DNA of 64,000 nt from IMG/VR virus record IMGVR_UViG_3300025133_009649, positions 1 through 64,000 of that record; one strand, 5' to 3'. Below are positions 3,496-18,174 of this stretch, piece by piece. The position numbers and the translations under genes were made by a program. A model generated the notes under the pieces. That model was not told the DNA's origin, ran no database searches, and saw nothing but the letters and a program-made list of their open reading frames with translations. The DNA comes from a virus. The first letter of the stretch is position 1. Each line of letters begins with the position of its first letter.

Positions 3496-4271
3496 GATCT
3501 CACATATCTTTTTCTGAATTAAAAATTTGGAATGAGTGTCCCTACAAACATAAATTAGTTTATAAAGACAAAATAAAAGAATTTTTAGGTAATGAATATA
3601 CTGCTTTTGGAACTGCTATTCACTATGTTTGTGAGAAGGCGGTCATGGACGAACCAAGCAAAAATCTAGATTATATCTTTCATGAGAAATTTTTAGAAGA
3701 AGTAAAACTACTAAAAGAAAATAATGTCGACATCAATCATAAAATGATCTCTCAAATGAGAGAACAAAGTAAGAATATTATTGATTATATTATTCCGGCT
3801 CTTAAAGAATGCTTTAATAAATTTGAAGTTATCTCGGTAGAAGAACAGCTTTTTATTCCTATTAAAGATACAAATCTCATGTTTAAAGGATTTATTGATC
3901 TGGTATTAAAAACATCTGACGGTAAATATCATGTTATAGATTGGAAAAGTTGTTCATGGGGTTGGGATTCTAGGAAGAAGGCCGATCGTATGATAACTTA
4001 CCAATTGACCTTCTACAAACATTTTTTTGCAGAAAAACACAACATAGATCCAAAAAATATTGAAACTCATTTTGCATTGTTGAAAAGAACAGCTAAATCA
4101 AATAACGTTGAAATATTTCGTGTAACCAGCGCCGCAAAAAAAACTGAAAATGCGCTTAACTTATTGAACAAAGCTACGTATAATATTGTTAATAATAATC
4201 ATGTGAAAAACAGGTTATCATGCACAACCGGATATGGCTGCGAATTTTATAAAACACAATATTGTAGGTAA
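3492..4271 (+). CDS. PD-(D/E)XK nuclease, Cas4/RecB-like with candidate iron-sulfur cysteines
   Basis: The 259-aa protein opens with 'HISFSELKIWNECPYKHKL', the typical RecB/Cas4 N-terminus with Cys16. The nuclease core shows Asp136 in 'FKGFIDLVL' and the D-x-K pair Asp150-Lys152 in 'VIDWKS'. The C-terminus carries Cys244, Cys250 and Cys258, so with Cys16 there are four Cys in the layout used for a 4Fe-4S cluster by Cas4 and AddB-type nucleases. The expected activity is exonuclease or flap cleavage in recombination or DNA degradation. No cas genes or CRISPR repeats are nearby, so this is a stand-alone phage nuclease. It starts with an ATGA overlap. Confidence 0.85.
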   Translation: MRSHISFSELKIWNECPYKHKLVYKDKIKEFLGNEYTAFGTAIHYVCEKAVMDEPSKNLDYIFHEKFLEEVKLLKENNVDINHKMISQMREQSKNIIDYIIPALKECFNKFEVISVEEQLFIPIKDTNLMFKGFIDLVLKTSDGKYHVIDWKSCSWGWDSRKKADRMITYQLTFYKHFFAEKHNIDPKNIETHFALLKRTAKSNNVEIFRVTSAAKKTENALNLLNKATYNIVNNNHVKNRLSCTTGYGCEFYKTQYCR

Positions 4272-4275
4272 ATAA

Positions 4276-5526
4276 ATGAAAAAAAAGAAGATTTTTGTGA
4301 TTTCTGATCATCCTTTTTCTCCATCGGGAGTTGGAACGCAAACAAGAAATGTTATTGAGTCTCTGATATCAACTGGAGAATATTCTTTTATTTGTTTTGG
4401 TGGTGCTATAAAGCACGATAATTATCAACCGCAAAAAATAGATCCTCACGGTGAAGATTGGGTAATTTATCCAGTTGATAATTATGGTTCACAAGAGACA
4501 GTTAGATCTATCATTCGTACAGAAAAACCAGATATGTTATGGTTTATGACAGATCCTAGATTTTTTCCATGGTTATGGGAGATAGAGGACGAAATTAGAT
4601 CATTAATACCAATGGTATATTATCATGTTTGGGATAATTATCCTTATCCAGTTTTTAATAAAGTTTGGTATAATTCATGTGATCATGTTGCATGTATCTC
4701 AAAAGTTACTCATGATATTGTAAAAACAGTTGCACCAGATACTGATTCACAGTATATACCACATGCTGTGAATTCTGAAATATTTAAAGCTTTAGAAGAA
4801 AAAGAAATTCTAGAATTAAGGAAGCAAGCAGGGCTTAACAAAGATGACTTTATTATATTCTGGAATAATCGTAATGCAAGAAGAAAACAATCCGGTAGTT
4901 TAATTTTTTGGTTTGCTAAATTTTTAGATAAAGTTGGCAAAAATAAAGCTAAACTTATAATGCATACGGAACCAAATGATCCAAACGGACCAGATTTAAT
5001 TGCACAAATTAATTCGTTAGGACTAATAAATGGTGAAGTTAGATTTTCGAAACAGAAAGTAGAACCTCAGCATTTAGCAGCAATGTATAATATGGCAGAC
5101 GTAACGGTTAATATAGCAGATGCAGAAGGCTTTGGTTTGGCTACTTTAGAATCATTATCTTGCGCAACACCAATAGTCGTTACGATGACTGGTGGTTTAC
5201 AAGAACAAGTTACTGATGGCGAAAATTGGTTTGGTATTGGTATCGAGCCAAACTCTAAAGCAGTTATTGGTTCTCAAGATATTCCCTTCATCTATGAAGA
5301 CCGAATTAGTGAAGACGATTTTATCGAAGCATTAGAAAAAATTTATAAAATGTCAAAAAAAGATCGACAGATGCTTGGTTTAAAAGGCAGAGAACACGTG
5401 ATGAAAAATTATAATTTTGATAAATTTCAAGAAACCTGGAGGGAAACAATTAAAAATATTCATAATAAATTTGGATCTTGGGAAACAAGAACCGGTTATA
5501 AATCATGGGAATTACTAGAGGTTTAA
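4276..5526 (+). CDS. GT4-type glycosyltransferase
   Basis: This 416-aa GT-B fold protein starts with 'FVISDHPFSPSGVGTQTRNV', the glycine-rich acceptor-side loop of GT4 enzymes. The donor-side E-x7-E motif is 'EGFGLATLE' (Glu284, Glu292), followed by 'PIVVTMTGGLQEQV'. It should transfer a sugar from a nucleotide donor with retention of configuration; donor and acceptor are unknown. There is no membrane segment. It opens a 13-kb run of sugar genes and stands 1 nt ahead of the next glycosyltransferase, so the two are probably co-translated. Confidence 0.9.
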   Translation: MKKKKIFVISDHPFSPSGVGTQTRNVIESLISTGEYSFICFGGAIKHDNYQPQKIDPHGEDWVIYPVDNYGSQETVRSIIRTEKPDMLWFMTDPRFFPWLWEIEDEIRSLIPMVYYHVWDNYPYPVFNKVWYNSCDHVACISKVTHDIVKTVAPDTDSQYIPHAVNSEIFKALEEKEILELRKQAGLNKDDFIIFWNNRNARRKQSGSLIFWFAKFLDKVGKNKAKLIMHTEPNDPNGPDLIAQINSLGLINGEVRFSKQKVEPQHLAAMYNMADVTVNIADAEGFGLATLESLSCATPIVVTMTGGLQEQVTDGENWFGIGIEPNSKAVIGSQDIPFIYEDRISEDDFIEALEKIYKMSKKDRQMLGLKGREHVMKNYNFDKFQETWRETIKNIHNKFGSWETRTGYKSWELLEV

Positions 5527-5527
5527 A

Positions 5528-7549
5528 ATGAAGAAAGTTTGTATAAAGGGCCCGTTTTTAACTCAATCAGGTTATGGCCATCACGCTAGAACAGTTATAA
5601 GAGCACTGAGAACAAGAGAAGATCTGTTTGATATATATCTACACCCAATTACCTGGGGAAAAACCAATTGGCTTTGGCAAGACGATGAAGAAAGAAGATG
5701 GATCGATCTTGCTTTAGAAAAAACTATAGCTTATAATAATAAACATAATGGCAACCCAATTTTTGACATATCAATTCAAGTTACAATTCCCAATGAATGG
5801 GCAAAAATAGCTCGATATAATATCGGCGTTACTGCAGGCATAGAAACTACTAAAATTTCCCCACAATGGATTGAAAAGTCGGAAATAGTGGATAAAATTT
5901 TAACAATCAGTAAACATTCTAAAGATGTTTTTGCTAATACAGTGTATGAAGCCACCAGGAATGATACTGGAGAAGAAGTAACCTTCAAATGCCAAAAGCC
6001 TGTTGAGTATATAAACTATCCAGTAAGAAAATTTGATTCTGCAGAATTAGATCTAAATTTAACTACTGATTTTAATTTCTTGGCCATCGCGCAAATAAGC
6101 CCTAGAAAAAATATTGAGCAATTAATAAAATGTTTTATTGAAAAATTTCAAGATGAAGAAAATGTTGGATTGGTTATAAAAGCCAATATGGCAAAAAATT
6201 CTTTAATTGATCGAATTAACAGTGCAAATATAATAAAACAATCAGTTTTGCAATATGGTGAAAAAAAATGTAAAATTTATTTATTACATGGATTTCTAAA
6301 TGACAATGAAATGGCTTCGTTGTATACGCATCCTAAAATAAAAGCAATGGTTTCAACTACTCACGGTGAAGGATTTGGACTTCCCTTATTTGAATCAGCA
6401 TACTATGGACTTCCAGTTATTGCAACTGACTGGTCTGGTCATTTAGATTTTCTTTATAAACCTACTAAACAAAAAAACGGTAAAATAAAAAATAAACATT
6501 TATTTTCTAAAATTAGTTATACCCTTGGACCTGTACAAAAAAGCGCTGTATGGGATGGTGTATTGGAAAAGGAGTCTATGTGGGCTTATCCTGAAGAAGG
6601 TTCAATTAAGATGAGTCTTGGAGAACTTTATAAAGACTATGGTCGTTTTAAAAAACGAGCAAAAGAACTACAGAAGTGGGTGTGTGAAGAGTTTACAGAA
6701 GACAAAATTTATAAGCAATATGTTAAGTATATTTTTGGTAATGATTATACAGATATCGATATACAAGATTTACCAAAAATATCTCTCGTAACATCAGTAT
6801 ATAAAGCAAGTGAATATATAGAGCAATTAATGGAAAACACCACTAATCAAACTGTGTTTAAAGATAAGTGTGAGTGGATAATATTAAATGCTAATGAAAG
6901 TGGGGATGATTTTGAAGAAGAAGTTATTCTAAAATACAAGGAAAAATATCCTGAAAATATAGTTTATAAGCGTCTTAAAGAGGATCCTGGTGTCTACGCA
7001 GTCTGGAATATGGGAATTAAAATGTCGACCGGCGAATTTATTACTAACATTAATTGTGACGATCGTCGTGCCCTACATGGAATCGAAAGACAAGCATCTG
7101 TATTATCAACAAAGCCAGATGTTGATTTAGTTTACAATGATTCTTATGTGGTCAAAGAGCCAAATATAACATTTGAAAATATTACTTCAGGAAGCCCTCA
7201 ATATAATCATGAGCAGTTTTCGAAAGAAGCCATGTTAAGAGCCAATTTACCACACAACAATCCTATGTGGAGAAAAAGTTTACATGATAAACACGGATAT
7301 TTCAATGAAAAACATGGGTCTGTATCTGATTGGGAGCTGTGGCTGAAATGTGCTTTTGAGGGCAGTAAATTTATGAAAATCGATTCTGTTTTGGGTGTTT
7401 ATTATTTCAATCCAACAGGAATTTCAACTAATCCAGAAAACGACTCTTGGAAGAAAGAAGAAGAGAAAGAAGTATTTAAAAAATATTTTAGTATGTTAAG
7501 AAAAGAAGACGCGTCACTACCTCTACCTGATGGTAATCTAGTGTTATGA
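5528..7549 (+). CDS. Two-domain glycosyltransferase, GT4 fused to GT2-like
   Basis: In this 673-aa protein, residues 1 to about 400 form a GT-B glycosyltransferase. It begins 'GPFLTQSGYGHHARTVI', has 'SPRKNIEQLI' in the middle and the E-x7-E motif 'EGFGLPLFE' (Glu281, Glu289). From about residue 417 a second GT-A, GT2-like domain begins ('ISLVTSVYKASEYI'), with an acidic metal-site-like 'NCDDRR' near residue 510 and a later 'SDWELWLK'. Fusions of two transferase domains usually add two sugars in sequence to one acceptor (inference here). It overlaps the next gene by 4 nt (ATGA). Confidence 0.88.
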   Translation: MKKVCIKGPFLTQSGYGHHARTVIRALRTREDLFDIYLHPITWGKTNWLWQDDEERRWIDLALEKTIAYNNKHNGNPIFDISIQVTIPNEWAKIARYNIGVTAGIETTKISPQWIEKSEIVDKILTISKHSKDVFANTVYEATRNDTGEEVTFKCQKPVEYINYPVRKFDSAELDLNLTTDFNFLAIAQISPRKNIEQLIKCFIEKFQDEENVGLVIKANMAKNSLIDRINSANIIKQSVLQYGEKKCKIYLLHGFLNDNEMASLYTHPKIKAMVSTTHGEGFGLPLFESAYYGLPVIATDWSGHLDFLYKPTKQKNGKIKNKHLFSKISYTLGPVQKSAVWDGVLEKESMWAYPEEGSIKMSLGELYKDYGRFKKRAKELQKWVCEEFTEDKIYKQYVKYIFGNDYTDIDIQDLPKISLVTSVYKASEYIEQLMENTTNQTVFKDKCEWIILNANESGDDFEEEVILKYKEKYPENIVYKRLKEDPGVYAVWNMGIKMSTGEFITNINCDDRRALHGIERQASVLSTKPDVDLVYNDSYVVKEPNITFENITSGSPQYNHEQFSKEAMLRANLPHNNPMWRKSLHDKHGYFNEKHGSVSDWELWLKCAFEGSKFMKIDSVLGVYYFNPTGISTNPENDSWKKEEEKEVFKKYFSMLRKEDASLPLPDGNLVL

Positions 7550-8388
7550 ACAACAAATTAGTTGTTGCTTCAGTAGCTACTCACAGTTGTTTAAAAGAGT
7601 TTTTATTAACCAAATATTCCTGTGAACTGTTTAACGAGTGTATATGGTACGTTGGTTGTGATCAGTATAGTTATAACTATCTTAAAAAATATAACAATAT
7701 ACAAGCTATACAATATGATATGAAAGATAACCAATCTGATCATAATTCGAATAATAAAGAAAATAGAGAACAATTTTTAAAGATAATATTAAATAAGTTT
7801 AATATTCTAGAAGTTGCATTAAAAGAAAATAGTTATTGTTTGTTTTTAGATTCAGATATGCTATTTTTAGACAAAATTGATAATAATATAATTAATCTTA
7901 TTAAGAATACACCTGTTGATTTTATAGTATCCCCACATTATTCTAGAGATCCAATGAACGAAGATAAACATGGATTTTATAATGTGGGGATGTTTGCATT
8001 AAAAGACCCCTCTCATATAAAACAATGGAGATACTTGTCAGAAAACTGTGAAAAATTTGGCCTCTATTATGAACAAAAACCATTCGAGCTAATATTAAGT
8101 AATTTTAATACGCTAAATTTACCAATAAATTATAATATTGGGTGGTGGAGATTTAATAATCAGCGTACACAAAGCAGATTAAGCCAACTTTCTTTGGCTA
8201 ATGAACAAGTAATGTTTGGTGATCTTCCAGCTATTAATTTTCATTTTCATGTTTTTAAATCCCCTGATGGTTATAACCCCGGTCAATTTTTAGTTGATAA
8301 AGTAATGAAATTATTAAATTTATCACATAAAATAGAATATAAGAAAATATTAGAATATTATGAGAAACTATCAGAAACATCTTTTTAA
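7546..8388 (+). CDS. GT-A nucleotide-sugar transferase, GT8-like
   Basis: This 280-aa protein has 'YCLFLDSDMLFLDK', a clear D-x-D metal/nucleotide site at Asp102-Asp104 after a hydrophobic strand, and downstream 'FYNVGMFALKD', the usual acceptor-side strand of GT8/GT77-like folds. A late 'NFHFHVFKS' may give the C-terminal metal ligand. It lacks membrane segments. It is coupled to the preceding fusion protein by ATGA, and the next gene begins 29 nt before its stop. Family assignment below the GT-A fold is tentative. Confidence 0.75.
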   Translation: MNNKLVVASVATHSCLKEFLLTKYSCELFNECIWYVGCDQYSYNYLKKYNNIQAIQYDMKDNQSDHNSNNKENREQFLKIILNKFNILEVALKENSYCLFLDSDMLFLDKIDNNIINLIKNTPVDFIVSPHYSRDPMNEDKHGFYNVGMFALKDPSHIKQWRYLSENCEKFGLYYEQKPFELILSNFNTLNLPINYNIGWWRFNNQRTQSRLSQLSLANEQVMFGDLPAINFHFHVFKSPDGYNPGQFLVDKVMKLLNLSHKIEYKKILEYYEKLSETSF

Positions 8389-9244
8389 GTTGTTTGAGGA
8401 ATTTCGCCAGGCCCCGACGTGGCCAAATTATCCGCCATATAAGAAGGGGGATTATTTAGAAGAGCGTTTTATAAAATATTTTCAAGAAATACAGCCTAAA
8501 ACAAAAAGATATTTTATTCCTGTAGCGTGGAGTTCTTGTTACATTAATAACAGAGATATTCCACTTCCTGGATTACAAGAGGCCTTGTCATCTTTGAAAC
8601 AAAACGAAGAATATTTTATGGTTGGAGTTCATGACGACGCGCCAAGAGAGGCGTTACCGCCAAATACTATAAAATTTCTAGCTGGTGGAAATAAAAGAGA
8701 CGAAAAAAGTATTCCAATACCAGTGGTCGTTAATAAAATTCCAGAATTTTACTTAAAAGACCTTAATTATGAAAAAATATATTTGGCTTCTTTTATTGGT
8801 TCTATGACTCATCCTATTCGCCGTATATTATTTGAAAAACAAAAAAATAATTCAGATATTATTTTTCAAATAAAAGGGTGGTCACCACTAGTATTAGAAA
8901 ACCAATTACAAAATTTTTTAAATGTAAGTGCACAAAGCAGTTTTGTTCTTTGTCCTAGGGGGTATGCTCCTACTAGTTGTCGACTTTATGAAGCAATGCA
9001 ATTAAATTCAGTTCCTGTATATATAAGTGATGATTTTTGGGTACCATGGTCTGAGGAAATAGACTGGAACTCTATATGCGTTTTTATTAAAGAAAAAGAA
9101 ATAAAATATTTAGATTTAATTTTAAAAGAATGCAAATATTCAGGAGAATATGATTTAAAACTTAAAAAAATAAAAGAAATATACGATAAATATTTTACAA
9201 TAGATGTTATAATAGACAAAGTTATTGAAAGAGTAAACATATGA
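8360..9244 (+). CDS. Exostosin-like glycosyltransferase (GT47 type)
   Basis: This 294-aa protein carries the exostosin core 'FVLCPRGYAPTSCRLYEAM' near residues 195-213 followed by 'VPVYISDDFWVP', the nucleotide-sugar-binding end of GT47/exostosin proteins. An earlier 'ASFIGSMTHPIRR' fits the segment before that core. Eukaryotic exostosins build heparan chains, and related short forms occur in bacteria, phages and giant viruses. The donor sugar is not predictable. The N-terminus overlaps the previous gene by 29 nt, and the stop overlaps the next ATG (ATGA). Confidence 0.88.
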   Translation: MRNYQKHLFKLFEEFRQAPTWPNYPPYKKGDYLEERFIKYFQEIQPKTKRYFIPVAWSSCYINNRDIPLPGLQEALSSLKQNEEYFMVGVHDDAPREALPPNTIKFLAGGNKRDEKSIPIPVVVNKIPEFYLKDLNYEKIYLASFIGSMTHPIRRILFEKQKNNSDIIFQIKGWSPLVLENQLQNFLNVSAQSSFVLCPRGYAPTSCRLYEAMQLNSVPVYISDDFWVPWSEEIDWNSICVFIKEKEIKYLDLILKECKYSGEYDLKLKKIKEIYDKYFTIDVIIDKVIERVNI

Positions 9245-10005
9245 AACAAATAGTTTTTGCAATTGCTGACTACCCTAATGAAAAACAGGATATATTTGAC
9301 AATCATCTCTCTCCTAGGAACAAACAATATTGTGATCATCATGGTTTTGAATATAAAATTATTAGAAATGGTATTAAATTTCGAGACAATTATACTTGGC
9401 ACAAAATATTTGAGATTAAAAGAATGTTGGATGAAGGTGAATTAAAAGATGACGACTGCGTTTGTAATATTGATGCGGACATGTGCATTGTTGACGGAAG
9501 ATATTCTATCTTTCCAAAAGAAGGAAAATCGTTTGCCCTAGCGGTAGACAACGGGAACTCTCATTGTTGGGGGTGGATATCTTTTAGAATTAATGAATGG
9601 TCAAGAAACATGATTAATCAGATTGTTGATGAGGAGCGATGGAAAAGATTAAAAGATACGCCCCATGGAAAGGATTTTAGAGAACAGGCAATGTGGTATT
9701 TTTTGTGCGGAATCATGTCACATAGTTGGCATTCTTTTTTGAATATGATCAATTATGGGTGGTATAGCGCATATGACGAAAAGGAAACATATTATTCCTT
9801 GGATGAATTGTACGAACATGTAGAGGTCCGAGGGCCCCGGTGGAATACCACCCTTTTAAAAGAAGAACAAAATGACTCAGTGAGCAAGTGGTTACAGCAA
9901 TATAATATTGTCACTTCCCAAAAACAAGACACTATTATTAGGCATTGGGCTGGTGGGCAGCCATGGAACTATCAAGAATATTGTTCCAAAGAGGTAATAT
10001 TTTAG
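9241..10005 (+). CDS. GT34-like (GMA12/MNN10-type) glycosyltransferase
   Basis: This 254-aa GT-A protein has 'RNKQYCDHHGFEY', the segment that precedes the catalytic core in GT34 enzymes, then 'WHKIFEIKRML' and the D-x-D site 'NIDADMCIV' (Asp78-Asp80). 'DFREQAMWYFL' and the late 'IIRHWAGGQPW' fit the acceptor side and the metal-binding His of this fold. Known GT34 members are galactosyl-, mannosyl- or xylosyltransferases; the sugar here is unknown. The gene is coupled upstream by ATGA and ends 1 nt before the next start. Confidence 0.78.
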   Translation: MKQIVFAIADYPNEKQDIFDNHLSPRNKQYCDHHGFEYKIIRNGIKFRDNYTWHKIFEIKRMLDEGELKDDDCVCNIDADMCIVDGRYSIFPKEGKSFALAVDNGNSHCWGWISFRINEWSRNMINQIVDEERWKRLKDTPHGKDFREQAMWYFLCGIMSHSWHSFLNMINYGWYSAYDEKETYYSLDELYEHVEVRGPRWNTTLLKEEQNDSVSKWLQQYNIVTSQKQDTIIRHWAGGQPWNYQEYCSKEVIF

Positions 10006-10006
10006 C

Positions 10007-10915
10007 ATGAAGATTTTATATGTCACTATCAAAGACAAGAACAAGCAGGGCGACTATTTAGATGTCATTTGCTTGAGATCTTTAAGATCTGTTTTGGGTG
10101 ACAATTGCATTGATTACCCAAAGAAAAAAATTCTTTATAATGATTGGTCTGAAGTTGAAAAGTCGTCGCTCCACGGCATGGGCTTCTCGCTATACGATCC
10201 TCCAATACAAGATATAACAGACAGAGGTTATGATGATGTTGATGTCGTTGTATATGGCTTCATTGACAACTATAAGGGAAATTATGTAAGTGACAAGTAC
10301 CCCGAACTAGATAAATTAAATAAACCAATTGTCTATATCGATGGCCACGATGATACCGTAGTAGTTAAGACGCCTTGCTTTAAACACGAACTACACGAGG
10401 CCCACCCGGACGTTTATCCGATGAATCTTGCCTTACCGTCGGCAAAGGTTAGAAAAATTAACCTTTCTAGCAAAACGCAATTAATTCAAAAAACAGCGCC
10501 TCCTTTTTCTAGATTTAGGCCTCAAATTTTAGGCATGCCCGGACGTAGATTATATATTTTTGACAATGAGAAAGACTATTATGATGATATGGCCAATTCG
10601 TGGTTCGGATTATCGTGCCGCAAGGGATCTTGGGATGCGCTGCGCAACTATGAAATTATAGCAGCAGGAGCACTTTTATTGTTCAGAGACTTTGATAAAA
10701 AGCCCGCACTAGCTAGCCCTCGGCTGGTGCCAGCCGTTTCTTATTCGACACCTCAAGAACTTCAGAGTATTGTCAATAGGCTTTTACCTCAAGGTGCTCC
10801 ATCAGATGAATATACAAGAATTCTTAATTTACAGCGCCAATGGTTATTAGACTACGCCACAGAGGAGAGGCTTGGTGAATATATGGTGTCTACCATAAAA
10901 GAGAAACTTTTATAA
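10007..10915 (+). CDS. Probable GT-B glycosyltransferase (spore-coat/CgeB-like)
   Basis: This 302-aa protein resembles the single-lobe GT-B proteins related to CgeB and YkvP. The C-terminal part has 'FGLSCRKGSWDALRNYEIIAAGALLLF', quoted here only by its ends 'SCRKGSWDALRNYE' and 'AAGALLLF', where the Glu near residue 211 matches the donor-side acidic position. The N-terminal half ('MKILYVTIKDKNKQGDYLD') looks like a Rossmann strand-loop. No D-x-D or membrane segment is seen. Context inside the sugar island supports the call, but it is weaker than its neighbours. Confidence 0.6.
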   Translation: MKILYVTIKDKNKQGDYLDVICLRSLRSVLGDNCIDYPKKKILYNDWSEVEKSSLHGMGFSLYDPPIQDITDRGYDDVDVVVYGFIDNYKGNYVSDKYPELDKLNKPIVYIDGHDDTVVVKTPCFKHELHEAHPDVYPMNLALPSAKVRKINLSSKTQLIQKTAPPFSRFRPQILGMPGRRLYIFDNEKDYYDDMANSWFGLSCRKGSWDALRNYEIIAAGALLLFRDFDKKPALASPRLVPAVSYSTPQELQSIVNRLLPQGAPSDEYTRILNLQRQWLLDYATEERLGEYMVSTIKEKLL

Positions 10916-10918
10916 TGA

Positions 10919-11110
10919 GTGTACAACAAAGCAGTTGCCAGCTTTACGGAGCACCTTAAATATATGGATAGTATTGGTTATATTCCATTTGATATATGTG
11001 AAACACATAGAACAGGAATTATTTTGTCACAAGTAGATATTGTTTTTTTAAAAAAAGAGCATCCTATTAATGTGGTAGCCCAAGACATAATTAATACTGT
11101 AGGAGAATGA
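10919..11110 (+). CDS. 63-aa protein resembling the C-terminal end of FkbM methyltransferases, possible remnant
   Basis: A GTG start 3 nt after the previous stop gives 63 aa. The middle and end, 'YMDSIGYIPFDICETHR' and 'ILSQVDIVFLKKEHP', look like the last strands of FkbM-family SAM methyltransferases, which commonly end with a Gly-aromatic, Phe-Asp, Gln-Val-Asp, Phe-Leu-Lys pattern. The SAM-binding part is absent and the upstream DNA codes for an unrelated transferase, so this cannot be an active methyltransferase alone. It may be a gene remnant still being translated, or a small protein reused by a partner. The ATG 3 nt upstream is in another frame and closes after 14 codons. Confidence 0.5.
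   Translation: MYNKAVASFTEHLKYMDSIGYIPFDICETHRTGIILSQVDIVFLKKEHPINVVAQDIINTVGE
11101..11106 (+). promoter_or_regulatory. Shine-Dalgarno site fixing a TTG start
   Basis: AGGAGA lies 7 nt before the TTG at 11114. The nearer ATG at 11107 is in another frame and closes after five codons, so this site supports TTG as the start of the next glycosyltransferase. Confidence 0.7.
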
Positions 11111-11113
11111 ACT

Positions 11114-11833
11114 TTGGATTATGAAATAGTAGTGCCAGCTAGTACGGCCAATAAATCACTTTTAAACAACTTTAAGAATTCTTATCGGTATTATAATAAT
11201 TCTTTTACAAAACAACCAATATTTTTTGGAGACCCAAGGACTACATCTTGTTATCATTCAAAAATGGTCAGAATGTTGGAGTTACTCGAACAATTAGATA
11301 GTAAATATATTATCGTATTGGATGGATTTGATCTTATTTTTAATAGGGAGCTTGACGACTCTTTATTTGATGATTTTATAAAAAACCCAAATTTGGAATT
11401 TATGTTCGGCGCGGAAACTAATTGCTTTCCCTATCCTCAATATAGTGATCTGTTTGATTCTCACGCGAGAACAAAGATGAAATATCTTAATGGAGGAGTA
11501 ATTATTTCCAAAAGAAAAAGATATATTGAAGTTCTTGAGGATTTTTTAAATCCACATAAATATTCACAACAAGAATTTTTAGCAAACTCTGATCAAGTCG
11601 CTTATACTTTACTTTACAAAGATGCACTAGAAAAGGAAAATCATAAAGTTATCATTGATTGCGAAGCTCGGATATCCTTACAGATGTTTGCTCTGGAAAG
11701 GGATGAAGACTATACTCTAGATGAAGAGAAACAACTAACATTTTTGGAAACTGGAAATACTCCATTTTTTGTACACTTTAACGGAGATGGGAAAAATCAA
11801 ATGCATCATTTTGGGATTGAATATGGAAAATAA
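11114..11833 (+). CDS. Lysyl-hydroxylase/procollagen-type glycosyltransferase domain protein
   Basis: This 239-aa protein begins at TTG, supported by AGGAGA 7 nt upstream. It matches the GT domain of procollagen lysyl hydroxylase 3 and related proteins: 'YIIVLDGFDLIF' (acidic residues 70 and 73), 'MFGAETNCFPYP', 'YLNGGVIISKRKR', 'SDQVAYTLLYKD' and a final 'FVHFNGDGK'. In animals this fold glucosylates or galactosylates hydroxylysine of collagen. No hydroxylase domain and no Gly-x-y collagen repeats are present in the window, so the acceptor must be something else or lie outside. A 62-nt AT-rich gap follows it. Confidence 0.82.
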   Translation: MDYEIVVPASTANKSLLNNFKNSYRYYNNSFTKQPIFFGDPRTTSCYHSKMVRMLELLEQLDSKYIIVLDGFDLIFNRELDDSLFDDFIKNPNLEFMFGAETNCFPYPQYSDLFDSHARTKMKYLNGGVIISKRKRYIEVLEDFLNPHKYSQQEFLANSDQVAYTLLYKDALEKENHKVIIDCEARISLQMFALERDEDYTLDEEKQLTFLETGNTPFFVHFNGDGKNQMHHFGIEYGK

Positions 11834-11895
11834 AATATATAATAAAAGCACCATTTCCTTGATGTTCTGTTAAACATGCGTTATTATATAATATA
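11834..11895. other. AT-rich 62-nt intergenic gap
   Basis: This is one of the few gaps in the sugar island. A weak inverted repeat (ATGTT at 11862-11866 and AACAT at 11873-11877) has no following T-run, so it is not a convincing terminator. A TATAAT at 11887-11892 sits only 3 nt before the next ATG, too close to serve as its -10 box unless the message is leaderless. No Shine-Dalgarno site is visible for the next gene. Confidence 0.4.
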
Positions 11896-12660
11896 ATGGA
11901 AACTAAAGAAATAACAATTTGTTTACATTGTGGTTGCGACCAAAATGTGGTGGATTCTCAAATAGAGAGTTTAAGACCTCTAGAGGAGACTTATAAAATA
12001 CATTGGAATAATAGAATTGATCGTCATCCAGGCGCCTACGACTCATACTCGGAATTAATTAATGATTCCATCGTCAGTTCCCCCACCGAAACAGTTATTT
12101 TAATCAACGATAGAACACGCCCTAAATCTCATGAAGTGGAGAAAATAATCCGACTTTTAGAGGGAGGATTCGCCGCCGCCACCATGTATAGCGTAGGATT
12201 TATGGGATTAACTAAAGAGCTTATTCGGCATATCGGATGGTGGGACGAGAGATTTTATGGTGCGGGATATGAAGATGACGATTTTGTATTGCGGTTACGC
12301 ATGAATGATTTGGCATATTATGAATCCGAGGAAGCAGATTATGATATGCACTGGCAGACTCCCTTAAGAGCGTCGGGCGGCGAGAAATGTTCCAGATCGG
12401 AACCATGGTTTAAAACCAAATGGCATATAAGCGACAAAGAGATTAGGCAAATGGTCGACAATGAAAATTATACAAAGTATGAAGGAAAACTAGGACCATC
12501 CAACCCAGAAATTAAATCTCGTTGGATGAAGTGGAACCAGTCTGTTATTGGGTATAGGTTTGCCTACCGCATGCAGACAAATCGAGGGGGGCAATCTCGG
12601 TCTTATTGGTTTATGGATTGGTCTGGTACTCAAAACGAAACGAAGAAGGTAGTAAAATGA
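11896..12660 (+). CDS. GT2/GT7-like glycosyltransferase
   Basis: This 254-aa GT-A protein has 'TVILINDRTRP', an early acidic nucleotide site, and a strong acceptor-side signature 'IGWWDERFYGAGYEDDDFVLRLR' quoted here as 'WWDERFYGAG' then 'EDDDFVLRLR', as in the catalytic segment of GT2 and galactosyltransferase (GT7-like) enzymes. 'DYDMHW' may supply a metal ligand. The only in-frame ATG is at 11896 and it lacks a visible ribosome site. Its stop overlaps the next start (ATGA). Confidence 0.78.
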   Translation: METKEITICLHCGCDQNVVDSQIESLRPLEETYKIHWNNRIDRHPGAYDSYSELINDSIVSSPTETVILINDRTRPKSHEVEKIIRLLEGGFAAATMYSVGFMGLTKELIRHIGWWDERFYGAGYEDDDFVLRLRMNDLAYYESEEADYDMHWQTPLRASGGEKCSRSEPWFKTKWHISDKEIRQMVDNENYTKYEGKLGPSNPEIKSRWMKWNQSVIGYRFAYRMQTNRGGQSRSYWFMDWSGTQNETKKVVK

Positions 12661-13637
12661 AAAAAATTCTTATAACAGGGGGTTTGGGATTTCTTGGAAC
12701 TCACTGCATAGAAAAGTGGTCCAAAGAGGGGTGGGAAATTTGTGTGGTGGATAATTTATCATCAAATGCTATTTCCCCCGATCACCAATTTGCGCGAAAG
12801 ACAACATTGATACTTGACGACGTGACAAAAGTTTTATGGGACGACTTGCCAACATTTGATATGATTTTGCACCTAGCGAGCCCCGTCGGGCCCGTCGGCG
12901 TGTTGAAACATTCTGGCAAAATGGCAAAAATCATTATGGATGATATATACTGGGCCATCGAAGGCGCAAGAAAAAATAATTGCCCATTGATTTTTGTTTC
13001 TACTTCTGAGGTATATGGTTATCGCGAGAACAAGACTTATTTATCGGAGGAAGACGATAAAGTTTTGAGAGGTGAATTTACGGTGCGCAATGAATATGCT
13101 ATAGCTAAGTTATTAGCTGAAATTGCTTTATCGAATAATGGAAAAGTTGATAAAAACTTGAAATATCAAATTATTAGACCTTTTAATGTTACTGGCGAAT
13201 ATCAATTGGCGGATGGAGGGTTTGTCTTGCCAAGATTTGCAATTCAGGCTTTAACTAATCAAGAAATAACGGTATACTATTCAGGTGAGCAAATAAGAGC
13301 GTTTACGTGGGCAAAAGATATAATTGACGGGATATATCTTGTCTCAAAGGCTCCAGAGCACTTATGGAACCAAGAATGGAACATTGGAAACGAAATGAAT
13401 GAAAAATCTATTCTTTATTTGGCCAAGAGAGTAAAAAAATTAGCCAACTCTTCGTCTAAAATAGTTCACGTAGATCCAAAGCATATACACGGAGAATTAT
13501 TTGCCGAGGCGCCAGAAAAAATACCCAATTCTGATAAAATTAAGAAACTTTTGGGCTGGCAGCCAAAAAAAAATGTTGACGACGTAGTCAAAGAAGTTCT
13601 AGACTTTTGGAAGAAGCGGAATAAAATAGATGAGTAA
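12657..13637 (+). CDS. NAD-dependent epimerase/dehydratase, extended SDR
   Basis: The start is set at ATG 12657, which overlaps the previous stop (ATGA) and gives 'MKKILITGGLGFLGTH', the canonical NAD-binding Gly motif at the very N-terminus. An in-frame ATG at 12606 would only add a tail made from the previous gene's coding DNA. In 326 aa the catalytic set is 'VSTSEVYG' (Ser/Thr) and Y147-x3-K151 in 'YAIAK'. 'IIRPFNVTGEYQ' and 'AFTWAKDII' match nucleotide-sugar 4,6-dehydratases, 4-epimerases or UDP-glucuronate decarboxylases. Which reaction it does cannot be settled by eye. Confidence 0.9.
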   Translation: MKKILITGGLGFLGTHCIEKWSKEGWEICVVDNLSSNAISPDHQFARKTTLILDDVTKVLWDDLPTFDMILHLASPVGPVGVLKHSGKMAKIIMDDIYWAIEGARKNNCPLIFVSTSEVYGYRENKTYLSEEDDKVLRGEFTVRNEYAIAKLLAEIALSNNGKVDKNLKYQIIRPFNVTGEYQLADGGFVLPRFAIQALTNQEITVYYSGEQIRAFTWAKDIIDGIYLVSKAPEHLWNQEWNIGNEMNEKSILYLAKRVKKLANSSSKIVHVDPKHIHGELFAEAPEKIPNSDKIKKLLGWQPKKNVDDVVKEVLDFWKKRNKIDE

Positions 13638-14493
13638 GAGAACGACGAAAAAAAACATAGGTGTTATTGGCAATGGGTTTGTAGGCTCTGCTATATCGGC
13701 CGGCTTCGCATTAGACGCAAATGTATTTGTATATGATCTAGATGAAAGGCGAAGAACCCACACTATTACTGAAGTTATGCACAAAAGCGATTTTATATTT
13801 GTTTGTGTCCCAACACCAATGAAGCTTGAGACTGGCGAAATTGATCTTTCAATTATCAGGGACGTTTTTTCCGATATAAAAAAAATAGCTACTAGGAGAG
13901 ACCAAATATTTATTATTAAATCTACAGTTACTCCAACTAGCTTAGAATCTATCATAAAAGAAAGTCCTGAATTGAGGATCGTGTTCAGCCCCGAATTTTT
14001 AACTGAACGCTCTTCGCGCCTTGATTTTATCAATTCAAATCGAATAGTAATTGGTGGTCACGAAAAAGACTTAGATGAAGTCGAAGAGCTATTTAAGATA
14101 CGGTTTCCGTTCACAAGAATTATCAAAACTGATTTAAAAACTGCACAATTTATAAAATATATGGCAAATTGTTTTTTCGCCACAAAAGTGTCTTTTATGA
14201 ACGAAATGTTTCAAGCAGCCCAGGTTCTTGAGATCGATTGGCAACATGCCATGGAGGGTTTTATTTCGGATGGCCGTATCGGCAATTCTCATATAAGTGT
14301 TCCCGGCCACGATGGTTATTTGGGCTTCGGTGGTAAATGTTTTCCAAAAGATCTTAATGCTTTTATTAAACTGTATGAAGATCTCGGAGTCGAGCCCACA
14401 ATTATGAGGGCCGCCTGGAAAAAGAATATGGAAGTAAGAGAGTGCTATGACTGGCTTGATATCGAGGGTGCAATAAGCACAGAAAATGAATAA
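13630..14493 (+). CDS. Short UDP-glucose/GDP-mannose dehydrogenase family protein
   Basis: This 287-aa protein has an N-terminal Rossmann motif 'GVIGNGFVGSAI', then 'VCVPTPM', 'FIIKSTVTP' and 'SPEFLTE', and the catalytic Cys237 in 'GFGGKCFPKD'. Family members oxidise UDP-glucose or GDP-mannose to the uronic acid by two NAD steps. Usual bacterial enzymes are about 390-450 aa; here the protein stops about 50 residues after the catalytic Cys and lacks the C-terminal nucleotide-sugar-binding domain. It may be a reduced but active phage form or have a changed donor site. It overlaps both neighbours by 8 nt. Confidence 0.9.
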   Translation: MSKRTTKKNIGVIGNGFVGSAISAGFALDANVFVYDLDERRRTHTITEVMHKSDFIFVCVPTPMKLETGEIDLSIIRDVFSDIKKIATRRDQIFIIKSTVTPTSLESIIKESPELRIVFSPEFLTERSSRLDFINSNRIVIGGHEKDLDEVEELFKIRFPFTRIIKTDLKTAQFIKYMANCFFATKVSFMNEMFQAAQVLEIDWQHAMEGFISDGRIGNSHISVPGHDGYLGFGGKCFPKDLNAFIKLYEDLGVEPTIMRAAWKKNMEVRECYDWLDIEGAISTENE

Positions 14494-16012
14494 TACAAAT
14501 AGAAAAATAGATATGAAAGAGCGTATATGCCTTATAACACCTCCATCACCATTTTTATTAGACGAGCGTGTTTTCATGCACTTGGGCATCTTAAAAGTTG
14601 CTGCCGTTTTAGAAGAACAAGGATACGATGTTGATTTTATTGATTTAAGCGCAGTAAAAAATTATTTGGATGTTTTAGATGATTATTTAAAATTAGATGA
14701 TAGCACCACTATTATAGGTGTTACTGCAACTACACCACAAATACCGTTTGCAGTTAAAATAGCAAAGCATATTGATGCTGTTTATAAAGATAAAGTTTGT
14801 AAAACAATACTTGGTGGGCCTCATGTTACTTTAATGAACTCCGCTTCAAAAAATGAAAAAAAGAAAAATTTTATTGGAAGCTGCAGAGCAACAAATGATA
14901 TTAAGACACTTATAGATACTTTTGATGTTCTAGTATGCGGAGACGGAGAATTAGCTATTTTTGAAGCTCTTAAAATAGACAAGGGCATTATTGACGCAGA
15001 TGACAAAGACTCACCATTATTTTTAAGTAATAAAATTCTTACTAGCATGCCTCTACCCGCGAGGCATTTGGTTGATGTTGACTCATACAAATATTATATT
15101 GAAAACGAAAGATCTATAAGTTTAATCGCACAATTAGGGTGTCCTTTTCAGTGTACATTTTGTTCTGGTAGAAGTTCACCATTTCTTCGAAAAATTAGAA
15201 CACGGACAACTCAGTCTGTTATAAACGAAATTGAGTACCTCTACCTAACATATAACATGAAAGGGTTTATGTTATATGATGATGAATTAAATGTAAATAA
15301 AGAAATGGTTCATTTAATGAGACAAATCACCAAGTTACAAAAAAAATATAATACTGAATTCAAGTTGAGGGGTTTTATTAAAGCAGAACTTTTTAATGAT
15401 GAACAAGCAGAGGCAATGTATAGCGCTGGATTCAGGTGGTTGTTGACCGGTTTTGAATCTGGTGACGAAAGAATATTAAAAAATATTAATAAACGAGCAA
15501 CTAGAGATGACAATACAAGATGTGTAGAAATTGGCAAAAAACATGGCTTAAAAGTTAAAGCTCTTATGTCAATTGGCCACGCCGGCGAAAGTATAGAAAC
15601 TATTGAAAATACAAAAAATTGGCTTTTAGAAGTAAAACCTGACGATTTTGATTGTACAATTATTACAACTTACCCAGGATCTCCCTATTTCGATAACGCT
15701 GTTTTTAACGGAACACATTATACTTATACTAGTAAACGAACGGGAGATAGATTACATCAAGCACAATTAGATTATTGTGTAGACCAGGATTATTATAAGG
15801 GCGACCCGGAGGGTGGTTATATATCATATGTGTGGACTGATTATATCTCTGCTGAAAACTTGGTTAAGGAAAGAGAAAAATTAGAAACAGAAGTGAGAAA
15901 AAAACTTAATATTGCTTTTAATCCTGCCCGACCCGGGTTGGTCTATGAACATTCTATGGGAATGGGCATTACTAATATTCCTTCACACATATTACGCTCT
16001 ACAAAAAAATAA
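14486..16012 (+). CDS. B12-binding-domain radical SAM protein
   Basis: In this 508-aa protein, residues from about 10 to 165 form a cobalamin-binding-like Rossmann domain ('CLITPPSPF', 'GILKVAAVLEEQGYDV', 'KTILGGPHVT'). The radical SAM core follows, with the iron-sulfur motif 'GCPFQCTFCSG' (Cys-x3-Cys-x2-Cys, first Cys near residue 218), 'MLYDDELNVN' and 'GFESGDERILKNINK'. Relatives do methylations, ring contractions and other radical steps. In sugar clusters they often modify sugars or nucleotides, but the substrate here is unknown. A second Met at residue 10 (14513) could be the start. It overlaps the dehydrogenase by 8 nt, placing it in the same unit. Confidence 0.88.
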   Translation: MNNTNRKIDMKERICLITPPSPFLLDERVFMHLGILKVAAVLEEQGYDVDFIDLSAVKNYLDVLDDYLKLDDSTTIIGVTATTPQIPFAVKIAKHIDAVYKDKVCKTILGGPHVTLMNSASKNEKKKNFIGSCRATNDIKTLIDTFDVLVCGDGELAIFEALKIDKGIIDADDKDSPLFLSNKILTSMPLPARHLVDVDSYKYYIENERSISLIAQLGCPFQCTFCSGRSSPFLRKIRTRTTQSVINEIEYLYLTYNMKGFMLYDDELNVNKEMVHLMRQITKLQKKYNTEFKLRGFIKAELFNDEQAEAMYSAGFRWLLTGFESGDERILKNINKRATRDDNTRCVEIGKKHGLKVKALMSIGHAGESIETIENTKNWLLEVKPDDFDCTIITTYPGSPYFDNAVFNGTHYTYTSKRTGDRLHQAQLDYCVDQDYYKGDPEGGYISYVWTDYISAENLVKEREKLETEVRKKLNIAFNPARPGLVYEHSMGMGITNIPSHILRSTKK

Positions 16013-16024
16013 GGAGATTAAAAA

Positions 16025-16933
16025 ATGAAAGCAGTAGTAACAGGCGGCAATGGTTTTATAGGAAGTCACTTGGTAGATAAATTAATAAAAGAGAAATGGG
16101 AAGTCGCTGTGATAGATAATTTATCTGCAGAATGCAATGAACAATTCTTTTTTAATGATAAAGCACATAATCACAAAGTTGATATTTGTGATTATGAAAC
16201 CATCCTTCCAATTTTTGAGAATGCAGATATAGTATTTCATTTAGCTGCTGAATCACGTATCCAACCAACCATTTTAAATCCATCTCGTGCTGCAGAAGTC
16301 AATGTAGTGGGTACCTGTAATGTTTTACAAGCCGCGCGCATACATAAAATAAAAAAAGTAATATATTCTTCTACTTCTTCTGGTTACGGATTAAAAAACA
16401 AGCCTCCCTTAACAGAAACCATGCCTAAAGATTGCTTAAATCCTTATTCTGTTACAAAGTGCGCAGGAGAAGATTTGTGTGTTATGTACAATAACCTGTT
16501 TGGATTAAAAACTATCACATTTAGATATTTTAATGTTTATGGACCACGCCAACCACTAAGAGGACAGTACGCTCCAGTAGTGGGTTTATTCTTGAAACAA
16601 TTTGCAAATAAAAAATCAATGACAATTGTTGGTACCGGCCACCAAAGAAGAGACTTTACTCATGTTTTGGATGTAGTGGAAGCAAATATATTGGCCGCGG
16701 CCACACAAAATGAAGAAGCATTTGGAGAAGTCTTTAATGTTGGAAGCGGGGTTAACTATTCTGTTTTGGAGTTGGCTAAAATAATTGGAGGAAAGTATAA
16801 TTTTATTGCGCCGCGCTCTGGAGAAGCTGAAGTAACTTTAGCTGATATCAACAAAATAAGAAATATCTTAGGATGGAATCCAAAATATGATTTTGTGGAA
16901 TACATGAAAAAAGAAGTAGAAAATATAAAATGA
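16025..16933 (+). CDS. NAD-dependent nucleotide-sugar epimerase, GalE/WbpP-like
   Basis: AAGGAGA precedes the ATG at a good distance. The 302-aa protein has the SDR motif 'VTGGNGFIGSHL', Y141-x3-K145 in 'NPYSVTK', 'YSSTSSGYG' as the Ser/Thr site, and 'FRYFNVYGPRQ', as in UDP-hexose 4-epimerases. A late 'RRDFTHVLDVVEA' is usual for the family. UDP-glucose, UDP-GlcNAc or a uronic acid are all possible substrates. It is a second, diverged SDR in the island beside the 12657 gene, so at least two different sugar donors are probably made. It overlaps the next gene by 4 nt. Confidence 0.92.
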   Translation: MKAVVTGGNGFIGSHLVDKLIKEKWEVAVIDNLSAECNEQFFFNDKAHNHKVDICDYETILPIFENADIVFHLAAESRIQPTILNPSRAAEVNVVGTCNVLQAARIHKIKKVIYSSTSSGYGLKNKPPLTETMPKDCLNPYSVTKCAGEDLCVMYNNLFGLKTITFRYFNVYGPRQPLRGQYAPVVGLFLKQFANKKSMTIVGTGHQRRDFTHVLDVVEANILAAATQNEEAFGEVFNVGSGVNYSVLELAKIIGGKYNFIAPRSGEAEVTLADINKIRNILGWNPKYDFVEYMKKEVENIK

Positions 16934-17334
16934 CTGAAAAGAAAATTACAGGCTTTATAGCTGGTTGTTTTGATTTACTGCATCCGGGGTATATTTTAAT
17001 GTTTGAAGATGCTAAAACTATTTGTAATCATTTAATTATTGCGCTTCACGAGGACCCTTCACTCGAAAGATCTCATAAACATAAGCCTATACATTCTTTA
17101 AAAGAAAGAGAGACAATATTAAAAGGCATTAAATATATTGATGAAGTAGTGTATTATAAAACAGAGAAAGAATTGAAAAATTTATTATTGGATATATCAC
17201 CAGATTATAGAATTATTGGAACTGATTATTTAGAAAGAGATTTTACTGGAAAAGATATTGAAGATATTAAAATATATTATCATGAAAGACAGCATGACTG
17301 GTCTTATTCAAAATTAAGGAGAAAAATATGTTAA
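16930..17334 (+). CDS. Cytidylyltransferase-like (TagD/RfaE2 fold) nucleotidyltransferase, HPGY variant
   Basis: This 134-aa protein starts 'GFIAGCFDLLHPGYILMFEDAK', quoted here as 'GCFDLLHPGYI'. In the family the second His of H-x-G-H helps bind the nucleotide phosphates; here it is Tyr21, with His18 kept. 'SLKERETILKGIKYIDEV' matches the next conserved block and 'HDWSYSKLRRKI' replaces the usual I-S-S-T-x-I-R end. Relatives join CTP or ATP to glycerol-phosphate, ribitol-phosphate or heptose-phosphate. It closes the sugar island and is coupled to the epimerase by ATGA. Confidence 0.85.
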   Translation: MTEKKITGFIAGCFDLLHPGYILMFEDAKTICNHLIIALHEDPSLERSHKHKPIHSLKERETILKGIKYIDEVVYYKTEKELKNLLLDISPDYRIIGTDYLERDFTGKDIEDIKIYYHERQHDWSYSKLRRKIC

Positions 17335-17537: not shown

Positions 17538-17798
17538 GTGCCCAAATATAGCTATAAGTGTGCACAGTGTAATAATATTATTACTATTTATCATTCAATT
17601 GGTGATAAAAAAACAGACTGTGATGCCTGTGAAACTCCTGGCACGCTTAAACGTTTGCCATCTAAATTTAGCTTAAATATACAAGAAAAAAAGAGCAAAG
17701 TGGGCGACTTAGTTAAGCACAGCATAGAAGAATTTGGAAAAGAACTTGAACAGGAAAAAGAGAAATTAAGAAATGAATTTTTTCACCCAGATGAATAA
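17538..17798 (+). CDS. FmdB-like zinc-ribbon protein
   Basis: Starting at GTG 17538, the 86-aa product begins 'MPKYSYKCAQCNNII' and continues with 'DCDACETPGTLKRLPS'. The two Cys-x2-Cys pairs and the M-P-x-Y-x-Y-x-C start are the hallmarks of the FmdB/CxxC zinc-ribbon family. The C-terminal half is a charged helix. Small zinc ribbons of this type are often found next to the gp55 sigma gene in T4-like phages and may act in transcription, but a role here is inference. Confidence 0.85.
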   Translation: MPKYSYKCAQCNNIITIYHSIGDKKTDCDACETPGTLKRLPSKFSLNIQEKKSKVGDLVKHSIEEFGKELEQEKEKLRNEFFHPDE

Positions 17799-18174
17799 AT
17801 ATGTTTTATTATTTTCAATAATATTAAATGGTATATTGCTGATGTTTGTTACAGGCATCGTTCCTTTCTTTTTATATCTTAGCATCATTATTAATTTAAT
17901 GCTTGTTTGGTATAGTGGTGTTTGTCTGTTGAGAGTTAATAATCTAGAAAATGATATGATTATACTTTTGCAAAAAAACGAAGATTTTCTAGATGAATTA
18001 GAAAATATTCATGCTCTAGAAATGTATTACGGAGATGAATACTTACAAAATCTTATTGTTAAGTCAAGAGACTTGGTTAACGATTTTGTTGATATACAAG
18101 AAGAATATTTTGATGTAGAAGTAACGGAATTAGAACATGACGAAGAAAACTCGCCGCCCCCGCAAGAAGAATAA
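17773..18174 (+). CDS. Small membrane protein with acidic coiled tail
   Basis: This 133-aa product has two strongly hydrophobic segments at about residues 9-28 and 30-52, then a long acidic helix ('LLQKNEDFLDELENI', 'ALEMYYGDEYLQNLIVK') and a Pro-Glu end. It is predicted to sit in the inner membrane with its tail in the cytoplasm. The function is unknown. A second Met at 17791 is a possible start; 17773 is chosen for the AAGAGAAATTAAGAA run just upstream. It overlaps the zinc ribbon by 26 nt and gp55 by 38 nt, a tightly coupled set. Confidence 0.75.
   Translation: MNFFTQMNKYVLLFSIILNGILLMFVTGIVPFFLYLSIIINLMLVWYSGVCLLRVNNLENDMIILLQKNEDFLDELENIHALEMYYGDEYLQNLIVKSRDLVNDFVDIQEEYFDVEVTELEHDEENSPPPQEE

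What the first reader, a model, noticed from the sequence alone, without database searches (positions are those of the whole stretch)
4276..17334. 13-kb glycan-synthesis island in a T4-like phage, with no capsule export genes
Eight or nine glycosyltransferases of at least five fold types sit with two SDR sugar enzymes, a sugar-nucleotide dehydrogenase, a radical SAM protein and a cytidylyltransferase, nearly all overlapping by a few nt. No membrane-bound initiating transferase, flippase or polymerase is present and none of the transferases shows a membrane segment. Inference: the island makes a defined sugar chain on a soluble acceptor, most simply a virion protein (tail or capsid) or a modified DNA base.
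Basis: partly seen in the sequence, partly recalled or inferred. Interest (0 to 1): 0.85.

Follow-up and report, generated by a model that had tools for sequence, protein, structure and literature searches.

The report
Swappable sugar-coat gene cassette in phages
A large group of ocean viruses that infect bacteria all carry the same two sugar-attaching enzymes, followed at the same genome position by a block of sugar-making genes that differs from virus to virus and seems to be swapped whole; this suggests that they build changeable sugar chains on a part of their own, most likely the virus particle, although this has not been shown in the laboratory.

Summary
The island is real: 13 tightly packed genes (4276-17334) on one strand. 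Eleven match sugar-enzyme families; two (9241, 10007) match nothing and are only putative transferases. The first two genes (a GT4 pair) are core: present in 55/55 and 50/50 relatives with room for them, inherited with replication and structural genes, and found in cultured phages of Flavobacterium, Microcystis and Rhodothermus. The rest is an exchangeable cassette (0.4-21 kb in relatives) at a fixed site before the late-sigma gene. Phages 88-90% identical in the core can share no cassette gene, while a distant phage carries nearly the same cassette. None of 571 cassette ORFs has two membrane segments; no initiating phosphotransferase (0/44 records) or Wzx flippase (0/21) was found. Some cassettes encode nonulosonic-acid, heptose or pentose donor enzymes. 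Best reading: a cytoplasmic system building variable sugar chains on a phage-encoded acceptor, most likely a virion protein, as in chlorovirus capsid glycosylation (nearest solved relative of both core enzymes: chlorovirus B736L). Host-envelope and DNA targets are not excluded. GT islands in marine T4-like phages are known; I found no description of a conserved pair with a swappable cassette.

The parts
3492..4271 (+). PD-(D/E)XK exonuclease; conserved left flank of the locus
   Evidence: PF12705 7e-17; same position in all relatives with room
4276..5526 (+). GT4a: core transferase 1 (retaining GT-B, GT4)
   Evidence: PF00534 5e-15; 55/55 relatives, 56-75% id; best PDB hit chlorovirus B736L 6e-17 over full length
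5528..7549 (+). GT4b: core transferase 2, here fused to a C-terminal GT2 domain; in most relatives GT4 only
   Evidence: PF00534 and PF00535; 50/50 relatives; best PDB hit B736L 4e-9; length split about 420 vs 660-700 aa
7546..17334 (+). Exchangeable cassette as a whole (11 genes)
   Evidence: Flanks conserved, content replaced in relatives
7546..8388 (+). PF03407-type putative transferase
   Evidence: PF03407 3.5e-5; 63% in G045
8360..9244 (+). GT47 exostosin / RXYLT1-like transferase (possible pentosyltransferase)
   Evidence: PF03016 8e-22, PF24785 1e-8; 41% in Synechococcus phage S-SKS1
9241..10005 (+). Unassigned, putative GT-A transferase (DxD motif by eye)
   Evidence: No family hit; 79% in L225
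10007..10915 (+). Unassigned, putative transferase
   Evidence: No family hit; 46-49% in L225
11114..11833 (+). PLOD-type glycosyltransferase (collagen hydroxylysine GT family); replaced by a methyltransferase-like gene in L225
   Evidence: PF25342 2e-16; PDB mimivirus R699 9e-5 and human LH3 5e-4
11896..12660 (+). GT7C/GT2-like putative transferase
   Evidence: PF02709 1e-3, below cut-off; 53% in G045
12654..13637 (+). SDR, UDP-glucuronate decarboxylase (UXS/ArnA)-like
   Evidence: NF008872 1e-27, below equivalog cut-off; TSEVYG motif by eye; 69% in G045
13630..14493 (+). Short nucleotide-sugar (UDP-glucose) 6-dehydrogenase without C-terminal domain
   Evidence: TIGR03026 2e-54; PHROG 9148 1e-49; GGKCFPKD motif by eye
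14486..16012 (+). B12-binding/radical SAM enzyme, probable sugar modification
   Evidence: PF04055 8e-22, PF02310 4e-9; 77% in G041 cassette
16025..16933 (+). SDR nucleotide-sugar 4-epimerase-like
   Evidence: PF16363 1e-58; cluster in 20 genomes
16930..17334 (+). HldE C-domain/TagD-type nucleotidyltransferase (HPGY instead of HxGH)
   Evidence: TIGR02199 2e-21; motif comparison
17538..18832 (+). Conserved right flank: Zn ribbon, small 2-TM protein, late-sigma gp55-like
   Evidence: phrog_234 late sigma 3e-7; conserved in relatives

Best explanation
The locus is a modular, lipid-independent glycan-building system of a T4-like (probably Far-T4) phage lineage. Shown by sequence: two GT4 transferases are a vertically inherited core; a block of transferase, nucleotide-sugar and decorating genes beside them is exchanged between phages; no membrane step is encoded. 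Inferred: in the cytoplasm the GT4 pair adds the first, shared sugar or sugars to a phage-encoded acceptor, most likely a virion protein, and the cassette enzymes extend and decorate it. In this window the cassette would supply UDP-GlcA, UDP-xylose and possibly UDP-arabinose for GT47 and other transferases. Cassette exchange would change the outer chain (a glycotype) without touching acceptor or core enzymes, altering adsorption or recognition of the particle.
For: Pair present in 55/55 and 50/50 relatives; distances track PhoH and gp55 (r 0.72-0.81); pair in phages of Flavobacterium, Microcystis and Rhodothermus; among only 12 genes detectably shared by G010 and RM378; bacterial-genome scan found it only on fragments of this phage family. 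Cassette exchange: mean 4.4% shared genes, no correlation with core identity; G034/G038 90% gp55, none shared; G009/G015 and window/G045 share cassettes despite divergent cores. No polytopic proteins, PHPT or Wzx. Both core profiles hit chlorovirus B736L best in PDB, homolog of a GT in the chlorovirus capsid-glycan set (PMC5408694). NeuB in 13/49 records.
Against: No acceptor protein or glycosylation site identified. B736L's own biochemical role is unproven (PMC5408694), and sharing GT4 does not fix the acceptor. Sugar genes resemble LPS pathways (UGDH, HldE, heptose genes), and the published reading of similar genes in pelagimyophages is host O-chain modification (PMC7029224).
Confidence: 0.5

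Rival explanations
1. Host-envelope remodelling: the enzymes add sugars to host LPS core, LOS or another lipid-linked glycan on the cytoplasmic face, using the host's own flippases, so that infected cells lose receptors for competing phages.
For: Soluble GT4/GT2-type enzymes build LPS core without their own flippase (established knowledge); UGDH, HldE-type, NeuB and heptose genes are typical of envelope glycans; published interpretation for pelagimyophages (PMC7029224); hypervariability would fit variable host surfaces.
Against: The GT4 pair is conserved among phages of Bacteroidota/Rhodothermota and Cyanobacteriota with different envelopes and was found only in this phage family in the genome scan; near-identical phages carry wholly different cassettes; G011 and RM378 keep the pair alone.
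Confidence: 0.27
2. DNA hypermodification: the pair and cassette build glycans on a modified base of the phage genome, and cassette exchange evades restriction.
For: Phage GTs do this (RB69 arabinosyl-hmC, PMC6024577); a UDP-arabinose-type donor pathway is possible here; the pair adjoins an exonuclease gene; immuto encodes annotated DpdA/QueF and Mel-JY01 a C5-methylase next to the locus.
Against: No thymidylate synthase/hydroxymethylase family in 44 records (bacterial controls ring); no C5-methylase in eight large relatives, immuto or RM378; no Tet/JBP, though no control rang.
Confidence: 0.16
3. The cassette makes a free small molecule or soluble polysaccharide released at lysis rather than a chain on an acceptor.
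For: Radical SAM, methyltransferase and sugar-nucleotide genes also occur in small-molecule clusters; no acceptor was found.
Against: A transferase pair kept in all relatives and followed by exchangeable transferases looks like chain building on a constant acceptor.
Confidence: 0.05

Closest known systems
Chlorovirus (PBCV-1/NY-2A) autonomous capsid glycosylation (PMC5408694, PMC7826918)
   Same: Virus-encoded, cytoplasmic; few GTs present in all members and others variable; conserved inner glycan with variable outer sugars; core profiles hit B736L best
   Different: Virus of algae; GTs not in one exchangeable cassette; capsid glycan proven there, not here
Pelagimyophage/cyanomyophage host-recognition cluster (PMC7029224)
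   Same: Hypervariable region with several GTs, UGDH and rfaE genes in marine T4-like phages
   Different: Lies between VrlC and gp14 together with tail fibres; here between exonuclease and gp55 with a conserved GT4 pair and no fibre recognised; read there as host O-chain modification
Moraphages (PMC12619734)
   Same: Large aquatic phages, mostly predicted Bacteroidota hosts, with four GT orthogroups in the core set; a Rhodothermus phage appears in their marker-gene trees
   Different: Homology of their GTs to this pair not tested here; no variable cassette described in the passages read
Mycobacteriophage virion glycosylation (Freeman et al. 2023, cited in PMC12619734)
   Same: Phage GTs glycosylating capsid and tail tube, without lipid carrier
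   Different: Unrelated phages (as far as known); no large exchangeable cassette known to me; paper not held, so from citation only
Flagellin glycosylation islands (Aeromonas Maf; PMC4065374)
   Same: Cytoplasmic, lipid-free glycosylation of a structural protein, including nonulosonic acids
   Different: Bacterial; acceptor known; Maf not seen here
Bacterial Wzx/Wzy O-antigen or capsule loci
   Same: Conserved flanks with replaceable central genes; sugar-nucleotide genes plus GTs
   Different: No initiating phosphotransferase, flippase or polymerase
Far-T4 phages (PMC4360716; RM378)
   Same: Shared GT4 pair, terminase, portal, sheath and RNR with RM378; phoH near structural genes reported for Far-T4
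   Different: Far-T4 paper has no mention of glycosyltransferases; RM378 has the pair but no adjacent cassette

Membership tests
Wzx/Wzy-type O-antigen or capsule locus | Membrane initiating transferase (PHPT) | tested here: not met
   PF02397 0/44 records, 9 control genomes ring; PF00953 (WecA type) was not searched
Wzx/Wzy-type O-antigen or capsule locus | Flippase and polymerase | tested here: not met
   PF13440 0/21; no polytopic ORF in 571 cassette ORFs nor of that size in two near-complete genomes
Chlorovirus-like virion glycosylation | Conserved subset of GTs plus variable subset | tested here: met
   compare PMC5408694
Chlorovirus-like virion glycosylation | Homologous transferase | tested here: met
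   GT4a profile to B736L 6e-17, aligned 5-395; distant, acceptor not implied
Chlorovirus-like virion glycosylation | Glycan on a virion protein | not testable with these tools
   Needs glycoproteomics
Phage DNA glycosylation (T4/RB69, Tet-GT) | Enzyme making a hydroxymethylated base | tested here: inconclusive
   PF00303 0/44 with controls; PF12851 0/47 but no control rang; PF00145 only in Mel-JY01
Host O-antigen conversion (gtrABC) | GtrA-type flippase and GtrB-type membrane GT | tested here: not met
   No membrane protein in any cassette; only a weak domain hit to PHROG GtrB in the GT2 part
Pelagimyophage host-recognition cluster | Located between VrlC and gp14 with tail fibres | tested here: not met
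   Located between exonuclease and gp55 in all closed loci
Far-T4 phages | Gp23, portal and terminase group with RM378 | tested here: inconclusive
   Relative G010 shares terminase, portal, protease, sheath, tube, RNR and helicase with RM378; no tree built; the window lacks these markers

The most novel reading that the evidence does not exclude
A whole lineage of T4-like phages has a dedicated, lipid-free protein glycosylation system for its virions: a fixed inner sugar made by two core GT4 enzymes, and outer chains (pentoses, heptose, nonulosonic acids) swapped as cassettes between phages, giving bacteriophages switchable glycotypes comparable to bacterial serotypes.
Probability: 0.42. Interest if true: 0.86.

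Novelty: new variant of a known kind. Interest (0 to 1): 0.68.

Why it matters
Phage GT genes are usually treated as scattered auxiliary genes that alter the host surface or DNA. Here a GT pair is among the few genes still shared by distant phages of hosts from different phyla, beside a cassette that turns over completely between close relatives. If the target is the virion, phages have a serotype-like locus for their own particle, which would bear on adsorption, competition between phages and recognition of phage particles. Cultured members (Flavobacterium phage immuto, Rhodothermus phage RM378, Microcystis phage Mel-JY01) make the question directly testable.

Tried and rejected
T4 late-promoter motif TATAAATA was not enriched (11 vs 10.6 expected), so timing of expression could not be read. 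AlphaFold models of 10007 and 9241 were unusable (pLDDT 36.8 and 35.1), so no fold search was made. The PF01702 search for DpdA missed immuto's annotated DpdA and was discarded as evidence. Collagen-like G-X-Y acceptors for the PLOD-type enzyme: none in window, G010 or G011 ORFs. Viral-contig scans for PLOD and 10007 gave no relatives, although 10007 has one in L225, so that scan is insensitive. Paper searches for virion work on immuto or Mel-JY01 found nothing relevant; the mycobacteriophage glycosylation paper is not held. The A1 hmmsearch value for RM378 (2e-123) is by construction, since that sequence is in A1; independent support is tblastn 3e-33 and 1e-36, and A2 7e-11 for the second gene.

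Full report
WHAT IS IN THE WINDOW. The window is almost all of a 64,086-base virus record, a fragment of a T4-like phage: PhoH, exonuclease, late-sigma-like gp55 and baseplate genes. Between exonuclease 3492-4271 and the Zn-ribbon/gp55 block lie 13 genes on one strand (4276-17334) with overlaps of 4-29 nt or gaps of 1-62 nt; the single 198-nt gap holds a 63-aa ORF. Profile scans identify GT4; a GT4-GT2 fusion; PF03407; GT47/RXYLT1; a PLOD-type GT; a weak GT7C-like GT; two SDRs; a short UGDH; a B12/radical SAM enzyme; and an HldE/TagD-type nucleotidyltransferase. Genes 9241 and 10007 match nothing; calling them transferases is inference from motifs and context.

CORE PAIR. I fetched 160 loci around gp6 and PhoH of relatives. 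Searching the window's genes against them showed that GT4a (4276) and GT4b (5528) accompany PhoH-2225-2481-exonuclease everywhere: 55/55 and 50/50 loci with room, at 56-75% and 43-72% identity. Their pairwise identities correlate with PhoH (0.81, 0.74) and gp55 (0.78, 0.72), as core genes do with each other (PhoH-gp55 0.87). The pair, in order, is also in Flavobacterium phage immuto and Microcystis phage Mel-JY01, both followed by sugar genes, and in Rhodothermus phage RM378, without an adjacent cassette. G010 and RM378 share only 12 detectable genes, and the pair is among them. In one genome for each of 84,980 prokaryote species the GT4a motif scan found five hits, all on stretches of this same phage family; the scan needs exact 7-8-residue motifs, so distant bacterial relatives are not excluded.

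EXCHANGEABLE CASSETTE. Everything after GT4b up to the Zn-ribbon gene is variable: 0.4 kb (G011) to 21 kb (G041). Among 20 closed loci (19 with cassette genes), pairs share on average 4.4% of cassette genes at 50% identity or more; 121 of 171 pairs share none; there is no correlation with GT4a identity (rho -0.04, p 0.56). G034 and G038 are 88-90% identical at PhoH, GT4a and gp55, yet none of their 16 cassette genes each (120 aa or more) is shared; over the whole records synteny resumes on both sides. Conversely the window's cassette, in much the same order, is in G045 (g9241 79%, epimerase 72%, UXS 69%, PF03407 63%), whose gp6 is 44% and gp55 59% identical. G009 and G015 share 17 cassette genes, most at 69-90%, while their core genes are 63-78% identical. 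The simplest reading is exchange of large parts of the cassette as a unit. All 48 GT2 and DegT hits checked in these records fall inside the locus.

CHEMISTRY. A sample of 150 cassette proteins from 18 records gives SDRs (21), GT2 (11), UGDH (6), methyltransferases, DegT aminotransferases, radical SAM, GT47, NeuB, cytidylyltransferase and PfkB kinases. NeuB is in 13 of 49 records; the three positions checked (G031, G032, G034) lie inside the locus, so some cassettes probably make nonulosonic acids. L225/G045 adds HddA- and GmhA-like heptose genes (by inspection). In this window UGDH, a UXS-like decarboxylase and a 4-epimerase-like SDR would yield UDP-GlcA, UDP-xylose and possibly UDP-arabinose; this rests on motifs and family level, as equivalog cut-offs are not met.

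NO MEMBRANE STEP. No cassette ORF of 571 has two predicted membrane segments, while LacY scores 10 with the same rule. PHPT is absent from 44 records and Wzx from 21, with controls ringing. Near-complete G010 and G011 contain no polytopic protein of Wzx/Wzy size.

WHAT IT DOES. Shown: conserved pair, exchangeable cassette, no membrane machinery, a core enzyme that looks phage-restricted. Inferred: a constant phage-encoded acceptor receives the first sugars from the pair, and the cassette extends the chain. I favour a virion protein because the pair is kept across phages of unrelated hosts, because the best solved relative of both profiles is the chlorovirus transferase B736L (6e-17 and 4e-9), and because chlorovirus GTs show the same conserved/variable split. 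Cytoplasmic glycosylation of a structural protein before export is established for flagellin. The host-envelope rival remains serious because the absence of export genes does not exclude cytoplasmic LPS-core modification. The DNA rival is weakened by the absence of hydroxymethylase-type genes but not closed.

NOVELTY. GT-rich hypervariable regions are described in pelagimyophages, core GTs in moraphages, and virion glycosylation in mycobacteriophages (cited there). I found no description of a conserved GT4 pair with an exchangeable cassette at a fixed site, and the Far-T4 paper does not mention glycosyltransferases. Most subscription papers could not be searched, so this is not proof of novelty. 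Verdict: new variant of a known kind; interesting; acceptor unproven.

Noticed in passing
window 11114-11833: Transferase of the collagen-hydroxylysine (PLOD/LH3) GT family, nearest solved relative mimivirus R699; no hit in the phage collection or in viral contigs.
   Followed up: partly
window 148-882 (-): Trypsin-like protease with a lipoprotein-type signal, opposite strand next to PhoH, kept at 29-73% identity in nearly all relatives.
   Followed up: no
window 24314-37096: Single 4260-aa ORF (2455-3752 aa in relatives) with several hydrophobic stretches, between baseplate-region genes; function unknown, possibly tail-length or baseplate related.
   Followed up: no
window 13630-14493: UDP-glucose dehydrogenase lacking the C-terminal UDP-binding domain; the short form recurs in 13 cassettes, so it is not a broken gene.
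   Followed up: partly
window 16930-17334: Nucleotidyltransferase has HPGY where most cassette homologs have HxGH; G012 shares the change.
   Followed up: partly
L188:8177-9010 and 12 other records: NeuB-family (sialic/pseudaminic/legionaminic acid synthase) genes, up to three per record, in a quarter of the records examined.
   Followed up: partly
L141, L145: The GT pair lies upstream of PhoH on the opposite strand: the locus has been moved or inverted in some relatives.
   Followed up: no
L163:16001-17492: In Microcystis phage Mel-JY01 the GT4a gene is annotated as two consecutive ORFs (83441-84013 and 84024-84932), so it is split or frameshifted.
   Followed up: no
L230 (WOR-3 MAG chromosome CP070664.1): A stretch of this phage family (PhoH to GT4a, then divergent) sits in a 2.8-Mb MAG chromosome: chimeric assembly or host link.
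   Followed up: no
G034 vs G038 records: Besides the cassette, large structural ORFs (33-43% identity) and about 10 kb upstream (murein endopeptidase-like gene and unknowns) diverge strongly between these otherwise 80-90% identical phages.
   Followed up: partly
L244, RM378 record 112985-114136: RM378 has an annotated UDP-galactopyranose mutase far from its GT pair, a possible donor enzyme for its glycan.
   Followed up: no
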